Source of the DNA: Arcobacter venerupis
GTDB taxonomy: Bacteria; Campylobacterota; Campylobacteria; Campylobacterales; Arcobacteraceae
DNA: 64,000 nucleotides
Direction: 5' to 3'
Assembly: GCF_013201665.1 (NCBI RefSeq)
Contig: NZ_CP053840.1
Coordinates: 1,178,001 to 1,242,000, forward strand
Under the pieces are notes generated by a model. That model saw nothing but the letters and a program-made list of their open reading frames with translations. It was not told the origin of the DNA and made no database searches. Shown here piece after piece: positions 54,082 through 59,267 of the stretch. The position numbers and the translations under genes are program-made. The first letter of the stretch is position 1. Each line of letters starts with the position of its first letter.

Positions 54082-55815
54082 CTAATACATACTATTTATA
54101 ACATTTGAATATTTTTCTTCAATTTTAGCTCTACAAATTTTCATAGATGGAGTTAATTCTCCTGTTTCTATTGAAATATTATTGGTTAAGATTTCGAATT
54201 TTACTATTTTTTCCCATTTATTTAGATTGGAATTCACTCTATTTATGTGGTTCGAAATACTCTTTAGAATATCATCTTTGTTATAATATTCTTCTATAGT
54301 TAAATTCTTATTTAGTTTTTTTGCATTTTCATATTTCTCTTTATCCACAAAAAGTAGGGCAGAGGTGTATTTTCTATTTTCAGAAATTATAACTGCAAAC
54401 TCTATATATTTATTTTTAGATAATTTTTGCTCAATTTCAACAGCATTTACATACTCTCCCGTTGAAGTTTTGAATATCTCTTTCGTTCTACTTTTTATAA
54501 ATAAATATCCCTCTTCATCTAAGAATGCAACATCACCTGTGTGAAGCCAACCATCTTTATCTATTGTTTTAGCTGTTAATTCCCCTTGATTTAAATAACC
54601 TTTCATCAAAGCAGGGCCTTTTACAAATAGTTCGCTGTTTTCATTTATTTTGATTTGCGCACTTGGAATTACCTTTCCACAAGAACCAACTTTATTTGCA
54701 TTTGGATAATTTGTAGAAATCACAGGTGAAAACTCAGTCAAACCATATCCTTGATAAACGGGAACATTTATATTTACAAAGAATTGTGCAATTTCTTTTG
54801 AAAGAGGTGCTCCTCCACTTATTAGTTTTTCAAGTTTAGAACCAAAGATTTCTCTAAATTTTGAATAGACAAGTTTGTCATAAATCTTAAATAAAAGTGA
54901 GTTTTTATTTATATCTTCTTTTAGGGCATAGGCAAATGCAAAAGAGGCTATTGCTCGACTAATAAATGGTTTTGTAGAGATATTTAGTTTAATTTTGTTA
55001 AATATTTTCTCTAAAAGTCGCGGAACAACAGTCATAATTGTAGGTCGCACAACTTTCATAAGATTTGCAACATTTAAAACATCATCAACAAAATAGATAC
55101 TAATTCCACGACTTAAATAATAACTCATTACAGTTCGCTCAAATATATGAGCCAAAGGAAGAACAGAAAGGGAAACTTCATGTTGTTCAAGATTTATCAA
55201 ACTATTTATATCATGAAGTTGTGAAACAATATTTTTATGTGTAAGCATCACACCCTTTGGAGTTCCAGTATTTCCACTTGTATAAATGATAGAAAAAATA
55301 TCATCTTCTAATGCTTCAAAAGAGGTAAATCCACTAGAATCACAAATCTGTTTTCCAATTACTAAAATCTCATCAAAGTTATAGAAATTTGGCTCTTTTA
55401 TACAAAAGTTGTGAGTAATAAAAGTAAGATGTGAATTCTCTTTTTCTATGTCATTTAGTCTTTCTTGAGAATCAATAAACATAAATTTCATAGAAGAGTC
55501 TTTTATCTCAAAATTAAGATTTTCACTAGAAATATTTGCAAAAATAGGAACACTAATAGCTCCCACTTGTAAAATAGCAAAATCAAAAATAAGCCAAAAA
55601 GGTGAAGATTTAGCAAAAATCCCAACCTTATCCCCTTTTTGAATACCTAAATCTTTCAAAGCAAGACTCAAACAAATAACTTTGTTCTTAAAATCACTTG
55701 TTGAGATATTTGTATATTTTCCATTTGATAAATAGTTTAAAAAATATTCATTATCATAGTTGTTTGATATATGTAAAAAAAGTTCACTATAGGTTTTGAA
55801 GTTGTAAGCATTCAT
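54082..55815 (-). CDS. fadD: long-chain acyl-CoA synthetase (AMP-forming)
   Basis: A 577-residue ANL-superfamily ligase. It has the P-loop-like IIYTSGNTGTPKGVMLTHKN, LPLAHIFERT, GYGLTEFSPV (adenine-binding) and DGWLHTGDVAFLDEEGYLFIKSRTKE, resembling long-chain fatty-acyl-CoA synthetases of FAA1/FadD15 type. It is the first gene of the beta-oxidation operon and activates imported fatty acids. RBS AGGAG precedes the ATG. The divergent upstream region carries a 17-bp perfect inverted repeat (55899-55915) that may be its operator. Confidence 0.92.
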   Translation of the reverse strand: MNAYNFKTYSELFLHISNNYDNEYFLNYLSNGKYTNISTSDFKNKVICLSLALKDLGIQKGDKVGIFAKSSPFWLIFDFAILQVGAISVPIFANISSENLNFEIKDSSMKFMFIDSQERLNDIEKENSHLTFITHNFCIKEPNFYNFDEILVIGKQICDSSGFTSFEALEDDIFSIIYTSGNTGTPKGVMLTHKNIVSQLHDINSLINLEQHEVSLSVLPLAHIFERTVMSYYLSRGISIYFVDDVLNVANLMKVVRPTIMTVVPRLLEKIFNKIKLNISTKPFISRAIASFAFAYALKEDINKNSLLFKIYDKLVYSKFREIFGSKLEKLISGGAPLSKEIAQFFVNINVPVYQGYGLTEFSPVISTNYPNANKVGSCGKVIPSAQIKINENSELFVKGPALMKGYLNQGELTAKTIDKDGWLHTGDVAFLDEEGYLFIKSRTKEIFKTSTGEYVNAVEIEQKLSKNKYIEFAVIISENRKYTSALLFVDKEKYENAKKLNKNLTIEEYYNKDDILKSISNHINRVNSNLNKWEKIVKFEILTNNISIETGELTPSMKICRAKIEEKYSNVINSMY

Positions 55816-55898
55816 TTTAGCTCTCCTATGATAGTTAAATTATAATAATTATAACTATAAATAATTTATTATCAAGAGAAGGCTTACAAAATAGATAT

Positions 55899-55915
55899 TG
55901 TTTATATTATAAACA
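55899..55915. promoter_or_regulatory. 17-bp perfect inverted repeat upstream of fadD
   Basis: TGTTTATATTATAAACA, palindromic about 55907, 84 bp from the fadD start and 110 bp from the NACHT gene start. TetR- or FadR-type regulators of fatty-acid genes bind sites of this size; assignment to such a regulator is inference. AT-rich palindromes can also arise by chance here. Confidence 0.4.
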
Positions 55916-55992
55916 GTAGAAATTACACATAATTATATTAAATTAGAAGTTCAAAATATAAAAGCATTTTAATTAATTATTAAAAGCTGTTG

Positions 55993-56018
55993 TATAATAA
56001 AAATTATTTTTAAAAGGA
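55993..56018 (+). promoter_or_regulatory. promoter -10 and ribosome-binding site of the NACHT gene
   Basis: TATAAT at 55993-55998 predicts a transcript start near 56005. AAAAGGA at 56012-56018 is a good Shine-Dalgarno sequence, and exactly 6 nt after it stands an in-frame ATA codon (56025), not ATG. There is no other gene start within reach, so this RBS strongly marks the true start of the long frame. Confidence 0.6.
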
Positions 56019-56024
56019 TTTATC

Positions 56025-58619
56025 ATAAAAAATATAACTACTATTACAGATTTAATTACTGATGGTTTCAAGTTCATTGATAAAAAAGATTATTTAAAAG
56101 ATTTTTTATCAAACAATGATGATTTATTATCAACAACTTCTTGGGGAAAACTAATAAAGTATTTAGGTGAAAAAGCTGTTGAAATAAGTGATTTAAACGA
56201 AGCATATTATTTTACAATTTATACAACTTATCTAAATACTTTTGAAAAAGCTTTAGACTATTTTGAAATTAGTTCAAATAACTTTTCAATTCCATTTAAT
56301 GAGGATTTAAAATATGATTATAATGAATTTGAATTATCAAAAATCACATCAAATCATTTAAAAATATATTTTGATGGAATATTTAAAGATTTTCTTTTAG
56401 AAGAGGATAAATCAAAAGTTCAAAGATATATAAACAATAATATCAAATTAAATTATTTTGAAGTACTAGAGCAAAATAGTTCAGTTTTAAATAAATATTT
56501 AAATCATACAAAAAGTATTTTAGGAATAGAAGAAAAAGAAATTTTTTTTAAAAATAAATATAAAAATACAATTGCAAATGAATATTTTGAAGTTGTATTG
56601 GGTGATGAAAATAGTTTGACTTTAGATGATTTGTATATTGAACCATATTTTAGAGTTCATAAAAATTGTTTTAAAGATAGTGATGAAAGATTAAAAGATG
56701 AACGAAGAGATAAATATGTAGATGTAGAAGATGAAAGTATTCATAATTTCATAGATGATATTTTAAACAATAAAAATAAACATAATTTAGATTTAAAAGA
56801 TGTAAATACCATATTTATAGCAGGGCAACCAGGTCAAGGTAAAAGTTCTTTTACAAAAAGATTTATTTACGATATGGTTGAAAATAGAATTTCTTTATCT
56901 AAAGATGTAATTTTAATTAAACTTAAAAATATAAAAGAACCAAATGATTTAAAAAATAAAAGTTTTAAAGAAATAGTAAAAGAAAATACAAGATTAGAAA
57001 TACATAACTTAGATGACTATATCGTAGTTCTTGATGGGCTTGATGAATTAGTAATGAAAACAGGTTTATCAACCAGTGATATTGAAACAATATGTCAAAA
57101 ATTTTCAAGAGAAAATACAACAATAATTATCACAACAAGACACGGGTATCTAAATTTTGATATATTAAACGAAGATAATATAGCTGTTGTAGAATTAAAA
57201 GAATTAGATGAAACTCAACAATTGTCTTGGTTAGAAAAATATAAAAAAACATATCCCGATATAAAACTATCAAATGAGATTATAGAAAAATTTCATAAAG
57301 ATGAAGATAAACATATTTTAGAGCTTATAAATCAACCTATTTTATTACATATGATTGCAAAAATGGATATAGAAAATATTGAAGAGTTAAGTAAAACTAC
57401 TTTATATAGTGAATTCTTTGAAATATTAATCAAAAGAAAATGGGAAAAAGATGCTCATACTCTATCAAAATTAAAAGGACTTGACCAAGAGGAATATTCA
57501 AGAGTTTTAAAAAATATGTTAAAAGAATTAGCTTTTCATATTTTTAATTCAGAGTATGAATATATCCAAAAATATGAGTTCGAAAAGTTAGAAAGTGTAA
57601 AAGAACTTCAAGGATTATTAGCAGAAAAAAACAACAATGAATCTTTAAAATCAAATCTAAAAGGTGTAATGGTATCTTTTTATTTTAAAGAGATAAAAAA
57701 AGTTGAAGAATCTAATCCTGAAGAAAGAAATGAGCACTATGCTATAGAGTTTTTACATAAATCACTTATGGAATATATGGTTGCTTCATATATTTATGAT
57801 TATTTAGATGAAAAGTTTTTAGATAAATCAAGTAAAACAAAAAAATATCATATTGACAGCGGAGAAGAAGTTTTAAAAGAGTTATGGTATCTATTCCATC
57901 AAAAAAGAATTTCTAGTGAAGTTACAGATAATTTATTAGAAATTATCAAAGAAAAAGAACAAAGTATAAATGATGAATTATCAAAGAGATTTGATGTTTT
58001 TTTAACATATTTGATAGAAAAAGACTTTTTATATGAATCAAATATAGGAAATAATAATCCAATAGAAAAGGCAAAAGATACTTTTTACGGATTTTGGCAA
58101 GTAATGTGTAATCTTGATGATAAAAATCACATGCCGGAAGATGGATATTTAAAACGTAAAATATTTAACAATTTTATTATAGATAGTGTTAATGAATTTA
58201 ATTTAATAAATATGGATTTATCAAATATGTATATCGGAAATATGGTTTATTTTGCATCTTCTAAAGGTTATAAAATTAATTTTAATGGTATTCATATAGG
58301 TGCATCCTTATTATTTGGTAGAAATAATAAATTTCATAATATATATATATTAGATGAAGTAATAAATTTAAATAAAGCAGAGAGGATTATTCATTCTAAG
58401 ATTTCATACACAACATTTAATGATTGTTCTTTCTCGACTGTAGATTTAATAAGTTGTCATTTTGTGAATTGTCAATTTAGTAAAGTAGTTTTTAGTAAAT
58501 TTAGTCATAGTTTGATATTTCAAGATTGTACTTTTATAAATTGTAAAGAAATTGATTTTAAGGAATTAAAAAAAGATAATTATTTTATAAATTGTACAAA
58601 TGATGATAAAAAAATCTAA
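56025..58619 (+). CDS. NACHT-domain STAND NTPase with pentapeptide-like C-terminus, AUA start
   Basis: The frame is open from 56001 to 58619, and the RBS at 56012-56018 points to ATA 56025, giving 864 residues. The first conventional start (TTG 56598) would remove 191 residues. The N-terminal 190 residues are helical and unrecognised. LYIEPYF leads into the NACHT ATPase, with Walker A GQPGQGKSS (about residues 267-275), Walker B YIVVLDGLDELV (about 332-343) and a sensor TTRHGYL. A helical arm follows, then a C-terminal stretch (about 750-850) of cysteine-rich pentapeptide-like repeats (FNDCSF, FVNCQF, FQDCTF, FINCKE). Bacterial NACHT proteins are anti-phage sensors; that role is inferred. Confidence 0.72.
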   Translation: MKNITTITDLITDGFKFIDKKDYLKDFLSNNDDLLSTTSWGKLIKYLGEKAVEISDLNEAYYFTIYTTYLNTFEKALDYFEISSNNFSIPFNEDLKYDYNEFELSKITSNHLKIYFDGIFKDFLLEEDKSKVQRYINNNIKLNYFEVLEQNSSVLNKYLNHTKSILGIEEKEIFFKNKYKNTIANEYFEVVLGDENSLTLDDLYIEPYFRVHKNCFKDSDERLKDERRDKYVDVEDESIHNFIDDILNNKNKHNLDLKDVNTIFIAGQPGQGKSSFTKRFIYDMVENRISLSKDVILIKLKNIKEPNDLKNKSFKEIVKENTRLEIHNLDDYIVVLDGLDELVMKTGLSTSDIETICQKFSRENTTIIITTRHGYLNFDILNEDNIAVVELKELDETQQLSWLEKYKKTYPDIKLSNEIIEKFHKDEDKHILELINQPILLHMIAKMDIENIEELSKTTLYSEFFEILIKRKWEKDAHTLSKLKGLDQEEYSRVLKNMLKELAFHIFNSEYEYIQKYEFEKLESVKELQGLLAEKNNNESLKSNLKGVMVSFYFKEIKKVEESNPEERNEHYAIEFLHKSLMEYMVASYIYDYLDEKFLDKSSKTKKYHIDSGEEVLKELWYLFHQKRISSEVTDNLLEIIKEKEQSINDELSKRFDVFLTYLIEKDFLYESNIGNNNPIEKAKDTFYGFWQVMCNLDDKNHMPEDGYLKRKIFNNFIIDSVNEFNLINMDLSNMYIGNMVYFASSKGYKINFNGIHIGASLLFGRNNKFHNIYILDEVINLNKAERIIHSKISYTTFNDCSFSTVDLISCHFVNCQFSKVVFSKFSHSLIFQDCTFINCKEIDFKELKKDNYFINCTNDDKKI

Positions 58620-58678
58620 ATAGTCAATAAAATATCATTGATAAAAAAATATGATAAAATCAAAAACAAGGTAAATCC

Positions 58679-58984
58679 ATGAACTGTCCAAACTGCAACG
58701 AAAAAATTGAATTAACAACAAAAAGATATTTTAAAAGTCTGTTAGGAAAACATATTTGCCCAAATTGTTCTACTGTGTTCAGTTTAAAACACACAAAAAT
58801 ATATTTTTTATGGATATTTTTATCAATCGTTTTTGTAGTGTGTAGTTCTTTATTTATAATTAATTTTGTCACAAATAAAGAGGTTTTAAATATAATTTAT
58901 ATGCTTTGGTTGGTGATTTTATTTTTTGTTTGCAGTTTTATAGATAGAAAAATTGAAAATAGTTTGCCGACTCGGAATAACTAA
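58679..58984 (+). CDS. zinc-ribbon membrane protein (CxxC-x20-CxxC type)
   Basis: 101 residues. The N-terminal zinc ribbon has CPNC (residues 3-6) and CPNC (27-30) separated by 20 residues, which fits the cxxc_20_cxxc small-protein family. Two transmembrane helices follow (about 41-63 and 70-88) and a short basic tail. The function is unknown. It lies 59 nt downstream of the NACHT gene on the same strand and could be co-transcribed, but it has its own AAGG at 7 nt from the ATG. It shares a terminator hairpin with the convergent acidic-protein gene. Confidence 0.75.
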   Translation: MNCPNCNEKIELTTKRYFKSLLGKHICPNCSTVFSLKHTKIYFLWIFLSIVFVVCSSLFIINFVTNKEVLNIIYMLWLVILFFVCSFIDRKIENSLPTRNN

Positions 58985-58994
58985 ACTCCTTCAA

Positions 58995-59020
58995 ATAAAG
59001 AGTAATTTCCTACTCTTTAT
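58995..59020. terminator. bidirectional terminator
   Basis: ATAAAGAGTA, an ATTTCC loop and TACTCTTTAT give a 10-bp stem between convergent genes. It contains the stop and last codons of the acidic-protein gene. Confidence 0.6.
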
Positions 59021-59267
59021 CTAATCTCATCTCTTCAAGAACTTCTAAAATATCTAAAGCATCTTCTTCTGTAAGGTTATTGTTTTCAATATCTAGTTCA
59101 ACTTCATCAAAATATGCTTTCATCTCTTCGAGATATTTTAATTCATCTTTATCATCTTTTGAACAATCGCCACTATCGATTATGTCCATCATCTCTTCTA
59201 AATTTTCATCAAGTTCTGGGATTAACTCTTCTTTTAGTATTTTTGCAAGTTTTTCTACATTTGTCAT
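59010..59267 (-). CDS. small acidic hypothetical protein (paralogue at 24.8 kb)
   Basis: An 85-residue protein with a strong negative charge, predicted to be two or three helices and without signal peptide. It shares its layout with the protein at 24758-25048 (MT.V.KL, then (L/M)IPE, a DD pair, EEM and a following acidic helix). The 4-nt overlap with the upstream peptide deformylase gene (ATGA type) shows translational coupling. Its function is unknown; partnership with a basic protein or the ribosome-linked deformylase is possible but untested. Confidence 0.62.
   Translation of the reverse strand: MTNVEKLAKILKEELIPELDENLEEMMDIIDSGDCSKDDKDELKYLEEMKAYFDEVELDIENNNLTEEDALDILEVLEEMRLDKE

What the first reader, a model, noticed from the sequence alone, without database searches (positions are those of the whole stretch)
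56001..58619. NACHT defence-type gene appears to start at an AUA codon
The frame is fully open 191 codons upstream of the first conventional start (TTG 56598), and I found no ATG, GTG or TTG among those codons. A good Shine-Dalgarno sequence (AAAAGGA, 56012-56018) stands exactly 6 nt before an in-frame ATA (56025), with TATAAT just upstream. Either AUA initiates weakly, which would keep a suicidal sensor low, or an ATG was recently mutated or misread, or the gene is a silenced allele. A gene caller would truncate it and leave an apparent 780-bp empty region.
Basis: partly seen in the sequence, partly recalled or inferred. Interest (0 to 1): 0.8.

Follow-up and report, generated by a model that had tools for sequence, protein, structure and literature searches.

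The report
Immune-type gene starting at AUA codon
A recently acquired bacterial immune-sensor-type gene really does seem to begin at the rare start codon AUA, and its host's family of bacteria appears to use such near-miss start codons in several ordinary conserved genes too, which gene finders that expect only the usual start codons would cut short.

Summary
The frame 56001-58616 is open, with no ATG, GTG or TTG before TTG 56598, and AAAAGGA stands 6 nt before ATA 56025. The 191 upstream codons have gene-like codon usage in this frame only and are homologous to the N-terminus of the one full-length relative found, which starts at ATG. The N-terminus is therefore real.

The new evidence is context. 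In a 27% sample of this genome, four further conserved genes lack an early ATG/GTG/TTG: dbpA (AUU), an auxin-efflux-type permease (AUC), uvrB (AUC) and tatD (AUA). The permease's aligned start codon is ATC, ATA or ATT in 57 of 61 genomes of the family. Outside the family, 27 of 27 homologues have a canonical start within 4 codons, against 4 of 61 inside. Near-cognate starts are therefore probably established in this lineage, which makes sequencing error or a dead allele less likely for the NACHT gene.

The gene lies in a 3.07-kb segment absent from two congeners. No second copy of the site exists to exclude a recent ATG-to-ATA change, and a low dose as its purpose is untested.

The parts
55939..59010 (.). 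Segment absent from two congeners, which hold 16 bp (G022) and 13 bp (G030) in its place; by G030 its right end is 59003
   Evidence: blastn of flanks, junctions read; 20-24% G+C against 27.6% in the genome sample
55993..55998 (+). TATAAT, possible -10 element
   Evidence: Sequence; not above chance in the promoter scan
56012..56018 (+). AAAAGGA, Shine-Dalgarno sequence, 6 nt before the ATA
56025..56027 (+). ATA, proposed start codon
   Evidence: leader predicted unstructured
56025..58619 (+). NACHT-type NTPase gene, 864 residues from the ATA
   Evidence: full-length relative L010
56025..56597 (+). 191 codons upstream of the first canonical start; N-terminal region without a Pfam match
56598..56600 (+). 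TTG, first canonical in-frame start (rival); poor SD. A second TTG at 56616 has SD pairing of -8.1 kcal/mol at a gap of about 10 nt
56808..57248 (+). NACHT domain
   Evidence: PF05729, 31.0 bits against a cut-off of 26.7; coordinates
58404..58496 (+). Weak pentapeptide-repeat-like stretch
   Evidence: PF00805, 16.0 bits, below the cut-off of 20.2
58679..58984 (+). Second gene of the segment: 101-aa zinc-ribbon and membrane-like protein, ATG start
   Evidence: weak TIGR04104 and YnfU matches below the cut-offs

Best explanation
The gene encodes an 864-residue NACHT-type NTPase, probably an anti-phage sensor, that came in with a 3.07-kb segment. Translation starts at AUA 56025: AAAAGGA, 6 nt upstream in an unstructured leader, places initiator tRNA on the near-cognate codon, probably at a lower rate than on AUG. 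The host family (Arcobacteraceae, from recall) uses AUA/AUC/AUU starts in several conserved genes, so the start is workable there. Shown: open frame, gene-like codons, N-terminal homology, RBS and its spacing, near-cognate starts at aligned positions of other genes. Inferred: initiation at the AUA itself, low dosage, defence function.
For: Frame and RBS. Codon statistics in this frame only. Full-length relative L010 matches residues 3-714 at 32%, E 2.8e-80; residues 1-191 score 163 against a maximum of 94 in 1000 shuffles; the first 77 residues give blastp E 3e-9. Permease start codon ATC/ATA/ATT in 57 of 61 family genomes, canonical start within 4 codons in 4 of 61 inside and 27 of 27 outside the family. 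dbpA ATT in 10 of 10 loci of its clade. uvrB and tatD of the same genome.
Against: No expression data. No second copy of the site. The one relative starts with ATG, which falls 5 residues upstream of our ATA without a gap, or on it if a 5-residue gap is allowed. TTG 56616 has stronger SD pairing, though at a long gap. For uvrB and tatD conservation across the family was not tested.
Confidence: 0.74

Rival explanations
1. A recent ATG-to-ATA change, in nature or in the assembly: the gene was built for AUG and is now weakly expressed or off in this isolate.
For: RBS spacing is ideal for an ATG at this very place; the only relative has ATG; the segment is recent and sparse; G-to-A is a common change (general knowledge).
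Against: Near-cognate starts recur at aligned positions in other genes of the family; the genome is one contig of 100% estimated completeness.
Confidence: 0.17
2. Translation starts inside, at TTG 56598 or better TTG 56616, and gives a NACHT protein without its N-terminal region, alone or beside the full-length form.
For: TTG 56616 has SD pairing of -8.1 kcal/mol.
Against: The gap at 56616 is about 10 nt; TTG 56598 has almost no SD; the N-terminal 191 residues are conserved with L010.
Confidence: 0.06
3. A dead gene, silenced for longer than one point mutation.
For: The C-terminal pentapeptide repeats are weaker than those of L010; the gene is rare (2 of 104 family genomes).
Against: 872 codons without a stop or frameshift in 20-24% G+C sequence; P-loop and DGLDE motifs intact.
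Confidence: 0.03

Closest known systems
Non-AUG starts of infC (AUA), ccpN (AUA), citZ (AUA) and cvfC1 (AUU) in Staphylococcus aureus (PMC13009471, passages read)
   Same: Near-cognate codon behind a strong Shine-Dalgarno sequence; there the yield is about 10% of AUG, up to 30% for ccpN in rich medium
   Different: There initiation was shown by ribosome profiling and reporters; other phylum, other genes, no immune gene
IF3-repressed GTC start of sigR in Streptomyces (PMC5472188, abstract)
   Same: A rare start codon that limits the dose of a protein
   Different: Other codon; the role of IF3 was shown there and is untested here
Bacterial NACHT defence proteins, bNACHT (PMC12169576, passages read)
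   Same: Central NACHT module between an N-terminal and a C-terminal part
   Different: No recognisable effector domain at the N-terminus; weak pentapeptide-like end instead of the SNaCT or NCH1 ends described there; no phage test
Relative L010 in genome G132, same family, other genus
   Same: Same layout and N-terminus; also a lone gene among housekeeping genes
   Different: 33% identity, ATG start, clear pentapeptide repeats

Membership tests
NACHT NTPase family | Match to the NACHT domain above the curated cut-off | tested here: met
   PF05729, 31.0 against 26.7 bits
NACHT NTPase family | P-loop and DGxDE-type Walker B motif (motif recalled) | tested here: met
   GQPGQGKSS and VVLDGLDEL in P0001
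bNACHT anti-phage proteins | N-terminal effector domain | tested here: inconclusive
   No Pfam match in residues 1-240; the single-sequence model has pLDDT 38 and was not used
bNACHT anti-phage proteins | Protection against phage | not testable with these tools
   No experiment possible; only a weak PADLOC match to mad8, E 1.6e-4
Genes with near-cognate (AUA/AUC/AUU) start | No canonical start upstream or nearby, with RBS at working distance | tested here: met
Genes with near-cognate (AUA/AUC/AUU) start | Near-cognate codon conserved at the aligned position in relatives | tested here: not met
   Only one relative, and it has ATG; met for the permease and dbpA, not for this gene
Genes with near-cognate (AUA/AUC/AUU) start | Initiation shown by ribosome profiling or N-terminal peptides | not testable with these tools
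   No such data at hand

The most novel reading that the evidence does not exclude
The family to which this genome belongs has a lineage-wide relaxation of start-codon choice: AUA, AUC and AUU behind an AGGA-type site serve as regular start codons for perhaps tens of genes per genome, among them a repair helicase subunit (uvrB), a ribosome-assembly helicase (dbpA), a nuclease (tatD) and a transporter, and a newly acquired immune sensor works from AUA. The seat would be IF3, initiator tRNA or the 30S P site, and gene catalogues of the family would be truncated at these genes.
Probability: 0.45. Interest if true: 0.82.

Novelty: new variant of a known kind. Interest (0 to 1): 0.62.

Why it matters
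Near-cognate starts in bacteria are known to me from a handful of genes, mostly infC and a few regulators. Here one permease carries ATC/ATA/ATT at its start in 12 of the 14 genera examined, with dbpA, uvrB, tatD and an immune-type sensor alongside in one genome. That gives natural replicates for how start-codon choice evolves and how a low dose is set. Annotations that admit only ATG, GTG and TTG, as the gene prediction of the Arcobacter butzleri genome did (PMC2147049, passage read; starts were then curated by hand), would lose about 45-190 residues of such proteins in this genome or leave apparent empty regions.

Tried and rejected
Frameshift or homopolymer error upstream: I saw no ATG in another frame that one indel near the start would bring into this frame (by eye). 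Start at ATC 56022: same SD but only 3 nt away. Start at ATA 56184 (SD -8.3): gap too long, and it would cut conserved residues. Repeats at the ends of the segment: none seen that mark its ends. RNA families in 55800-59100: none at gathering score. Promoter scan: not above shuffles. Methylation-type base-calling error at a former CATG: CATG is rare here (1446 found, 2241 expected), which does not settle it.

More homologues: none confirmed in viral contigs, genome contigs, phages, or for the N-terminus in plasmids. In plasmids, 13 records match the whole protein, at most 49% of it, around the NACHT part. Relatives sample: 1 of 120, itself. Family: 2 of 104. Order and phylum samples: one partial C-terminal match in 398 genomes and one NACHT-part match in 397, besides itself. 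Solved structures: only two pentapeptide-repeat chains. Structure: single-sequence AlphaFold gave pLDDT 37.8, so no fold search was made; the second job was not used, because the only full-length homologue came by the genome search, which the tool does not name among accepted sources.

Survey control: the same scan in G110 (another family, 50.6% G+C) is not comparable; 62 of 297 frames there lack a start in the first 30 codons, which I read as mostly spurious frames, so it is no control.

Full report
OBSERVATION. The frame from 56001 to 58616 is open for 872 codons after TAA 55998-56000, and its first ATG/GTG/TTG is TTG 56598. AAAAGGA (56012-56018) lies 6 nt before ATA 56025; TATAAT is at 55993-55998. 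In 864 kb (the window plus 40 stretches of 20 kb of the same genome) 708 frames of 120 or more codons were kept, and this frame's start-less run of 199 codons is the longest of any that I read as a gene. Codon statistics of 56025-56597 are gene-like in this frame only (0.197 per codon; gene windows median 0.228, 5% quantile 0.091; other five frames 0.061 or less). SD pairing at the ATA is -5.6 kcal/mol, as strong as or stronger than 68% of 406 ATG genes, against -0.9 at TTG 56598. AGGA exactly 6 nt upstream is found at 46 of 5,835 internal ATA codons and at 54 of 406 first-ATG starts. The leader is predicted unstructured. The TATAAT is not above chance.

THE PROTEIN. From the ATA it has 864 residues: an N-terminal region with no Pfam match in its first 240 residues, a NACHT domain above the cut-off (31.0 against 26.7 bits) with GQPGQGKSS and VVLDGLDEL, and a weakly pentapeptide-like end. 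Of 104 family genomes searched with a two-row profile, 2 carry it: this one and G132. The G132 protein (L010) has 866 residues, starts at ATG, and has NACHT and clear pentapeptide repeats. It matches residues 3-714 at 32% identity, E 2.8e-80. Over residues 1-191, 53 of 182 aligned positions are identical, and the local score is 163 against a maximum of 94 in 1000 shuffles. The N-terminus is therefore real and shared, and a start at TTG 56598 would remove it. The relative's Met lies 5 residues upstream of our ATA in one alignment and on it, with a 5-residue gap, in another. At the upstream place the window has TTA, not a start.

SETTING. G022 and G030, the two congeners whose DNA matches the left flank well, hold 16 and 13 bp where the window has 55939 to 59010 (or 59003). 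The segment has 20-24% G+C against 27.6% and also holds a 101-aa zinc-ribbon and membrane-like gene. I take it as a recent acquisition; its mode of entry is unknown. A defence function is inferred from the NACHT family, not shown.

WHY AUA IS PLAUSIBLE HERE. Four further genes of this genome lack an early canonical start. (1) dbpA (NCBIfam DbpA, 620 bits): ATT behind AAAGG. Of 30 genus loci examined, 10 have this ATT, 10 of 10 in that clade, while the ATC two codons on, where other species have ATG, is not kept in two of the ten; the other 20 have ATG (13) or GTG (7) two to three codons downstream. The next canonical codon in the ten lies 8, 21 (three loci), 36, 55 (two), 101 and 127 (two) codons downstream, so in some of them another start is not excluded. 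(2) An auxin-efflux-type permease (PF03547): the aligned start codon in 61 loci from 61 genomes and 14 genera is ATC 30, ATA 24, ATT 3, TTG 2, GTG 1, ATG 1. In six loci an in-frame stop stands directly before it, in nine more two codons before. Of the 57 near-cognate loci, 54 have no canonical start upstream in the open frame; L172, L180 and L183 do. In 15 of the 57 a canonical codon lies 11-18 codons downstream, inside or near the first membrane segment as I read it; I think these unlikely starts but cannot exclude them. One near-cognate locus (L186) has a weak SD (-0.8). A canonical start lies within 4 codons of the aligned position in 4 of 61 family loci and in 27 of 27 loci of other families of the order. 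At the exactly aligned codon the outside loci have 13 of 27 canonical, 8 of 27 ATC/ATA/ATT and 6 others; where I read them the canonical start is a codon or a few away. Left out of these counts: G034 (no match) and G044 (match, no locus) of the 32 genomes; 13 of the 40 genomes had no match. (3) uvrB: only GCC ATC stand between a stop and the conserved N-terminus, and the next canonical codon is residue 52, past the P-loop. (4) tatD: ATA where the homologue in G110 has ATG. With the NACHT gene these are 5 of 610 frames of 160 or more codons. They were picked by eye from 27 frames without a start in the first 22 codons; most of the others show a plausible canonical start further on. A DUF234 protein (L058) may be a sixth. 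In G043, another genus, a DEAD-box helicase (ATC) and a radical-SAM-like protein (ATT) look alike (names by eye). infC of this genus starts at TTG in this genome and in the nine relatives' loci that were read.

MECHANISM. Most likely the small subunit is placed by AAAAGGA and initiator tRNA accepts AUA at a reduced rate, giving low, steady amounts of the sensor. In S. aureus such starts give about 10-30% of AUG (PMC13009471, passages), and an IF3-repressed GTC start limits SigR in Streptomyces (PMC5472188, abstract). Whether the low dose is selected, or only tolerated in a lineage that accepts such codons, is open.

WHAT WEIGHS AGAINST. No expression evidence; no second copy of the site; the relative uses ATG; an ATG-to-ATA step after arrival remains possible (0.17). 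TTG 56616 pairs better with the anti-SD, at a gap of about 10 nt. The lack of starts alone is not extreme (1.1% of gene windows).

LITERATURE. Searches that combined non-AUG start terms with Arcobacter, Campylobacter jejuni, Epsilonproteobacteria/Campylobacterota or dbpA listed no report that I recognised as dealing with such starts in this family; I saw listings of the top 12-20 papers, not all hits. The C. jejuni Ribo-seq paper (PMC11955535) has no occurrence of the words ATT, ATA, ATC, near-cognate or non-canonical in its main text. The A. butzleri genome paper predicted genes with ATG, GTG and TTG and then curated starts by hand (PMC2147049, passages). That the family is Arcobacteraceae is recall (G+C, gene content, and the 3,192,235-bp size of G043, which I recall as that of Arcobacter nitrofigilis); the genome tools gave no names.

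VERDICT. Observation confirmed; AUA initiation is the best explanation at 0.74. The larger result, outside the finding as given, is that this family seems to use near-cognate starts in several conserved genes.

Noticed in passing
L101:14080-15000 (+) = G000:C1:104080-105000; relatives L133-L193: Auxin-efflux-type permease whose aligned start codon is ATC/ATA/ATT in 57 of 61 family genomes, canonical within 4 codons in 27 of 27 homologues outside. Possibly more interesting than the finding itself.
   Followed up: yes
L063:2923-4314 (-) = G000:C1:2132923-2134314; relatives L071-L100: RNA helicase gene dbpA with an ATT start kept in 10 of 10 loci of one clade; 20 other genus loci use ATG or GTG.
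   Followed up: yes
L106:6850-8823 (+) and L111:16145-16942 (-): uvrB seems to start at ATC and tatD at ATA in this genome; conservation across the family not tested.
   Followed up: partly
L255:12869-14194 (+) and L255:11918-12793 (-), genome G043: A DEAD-box helicase and a radical-SAM-like protein with apparent ATC and ATT starts in another genus of the family.
   Followed up: no
L058:17871-18755 (-): DUF234 protein with an apparent ATT start behind AAGGA.
   Followed up: no
L119:16133-19786: Near-identical 150-codon open frames repeat every 642 bp, probably antisense to a long gene with tandem repeats.
   Followed up: no
G000 sample of 864 kb: GATC (669 found, 2437 expected) and CATG (1446 found, 2241 expected) are rare for the word composition, which may reflect avoidance of restriction sites.
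   Followed up: no
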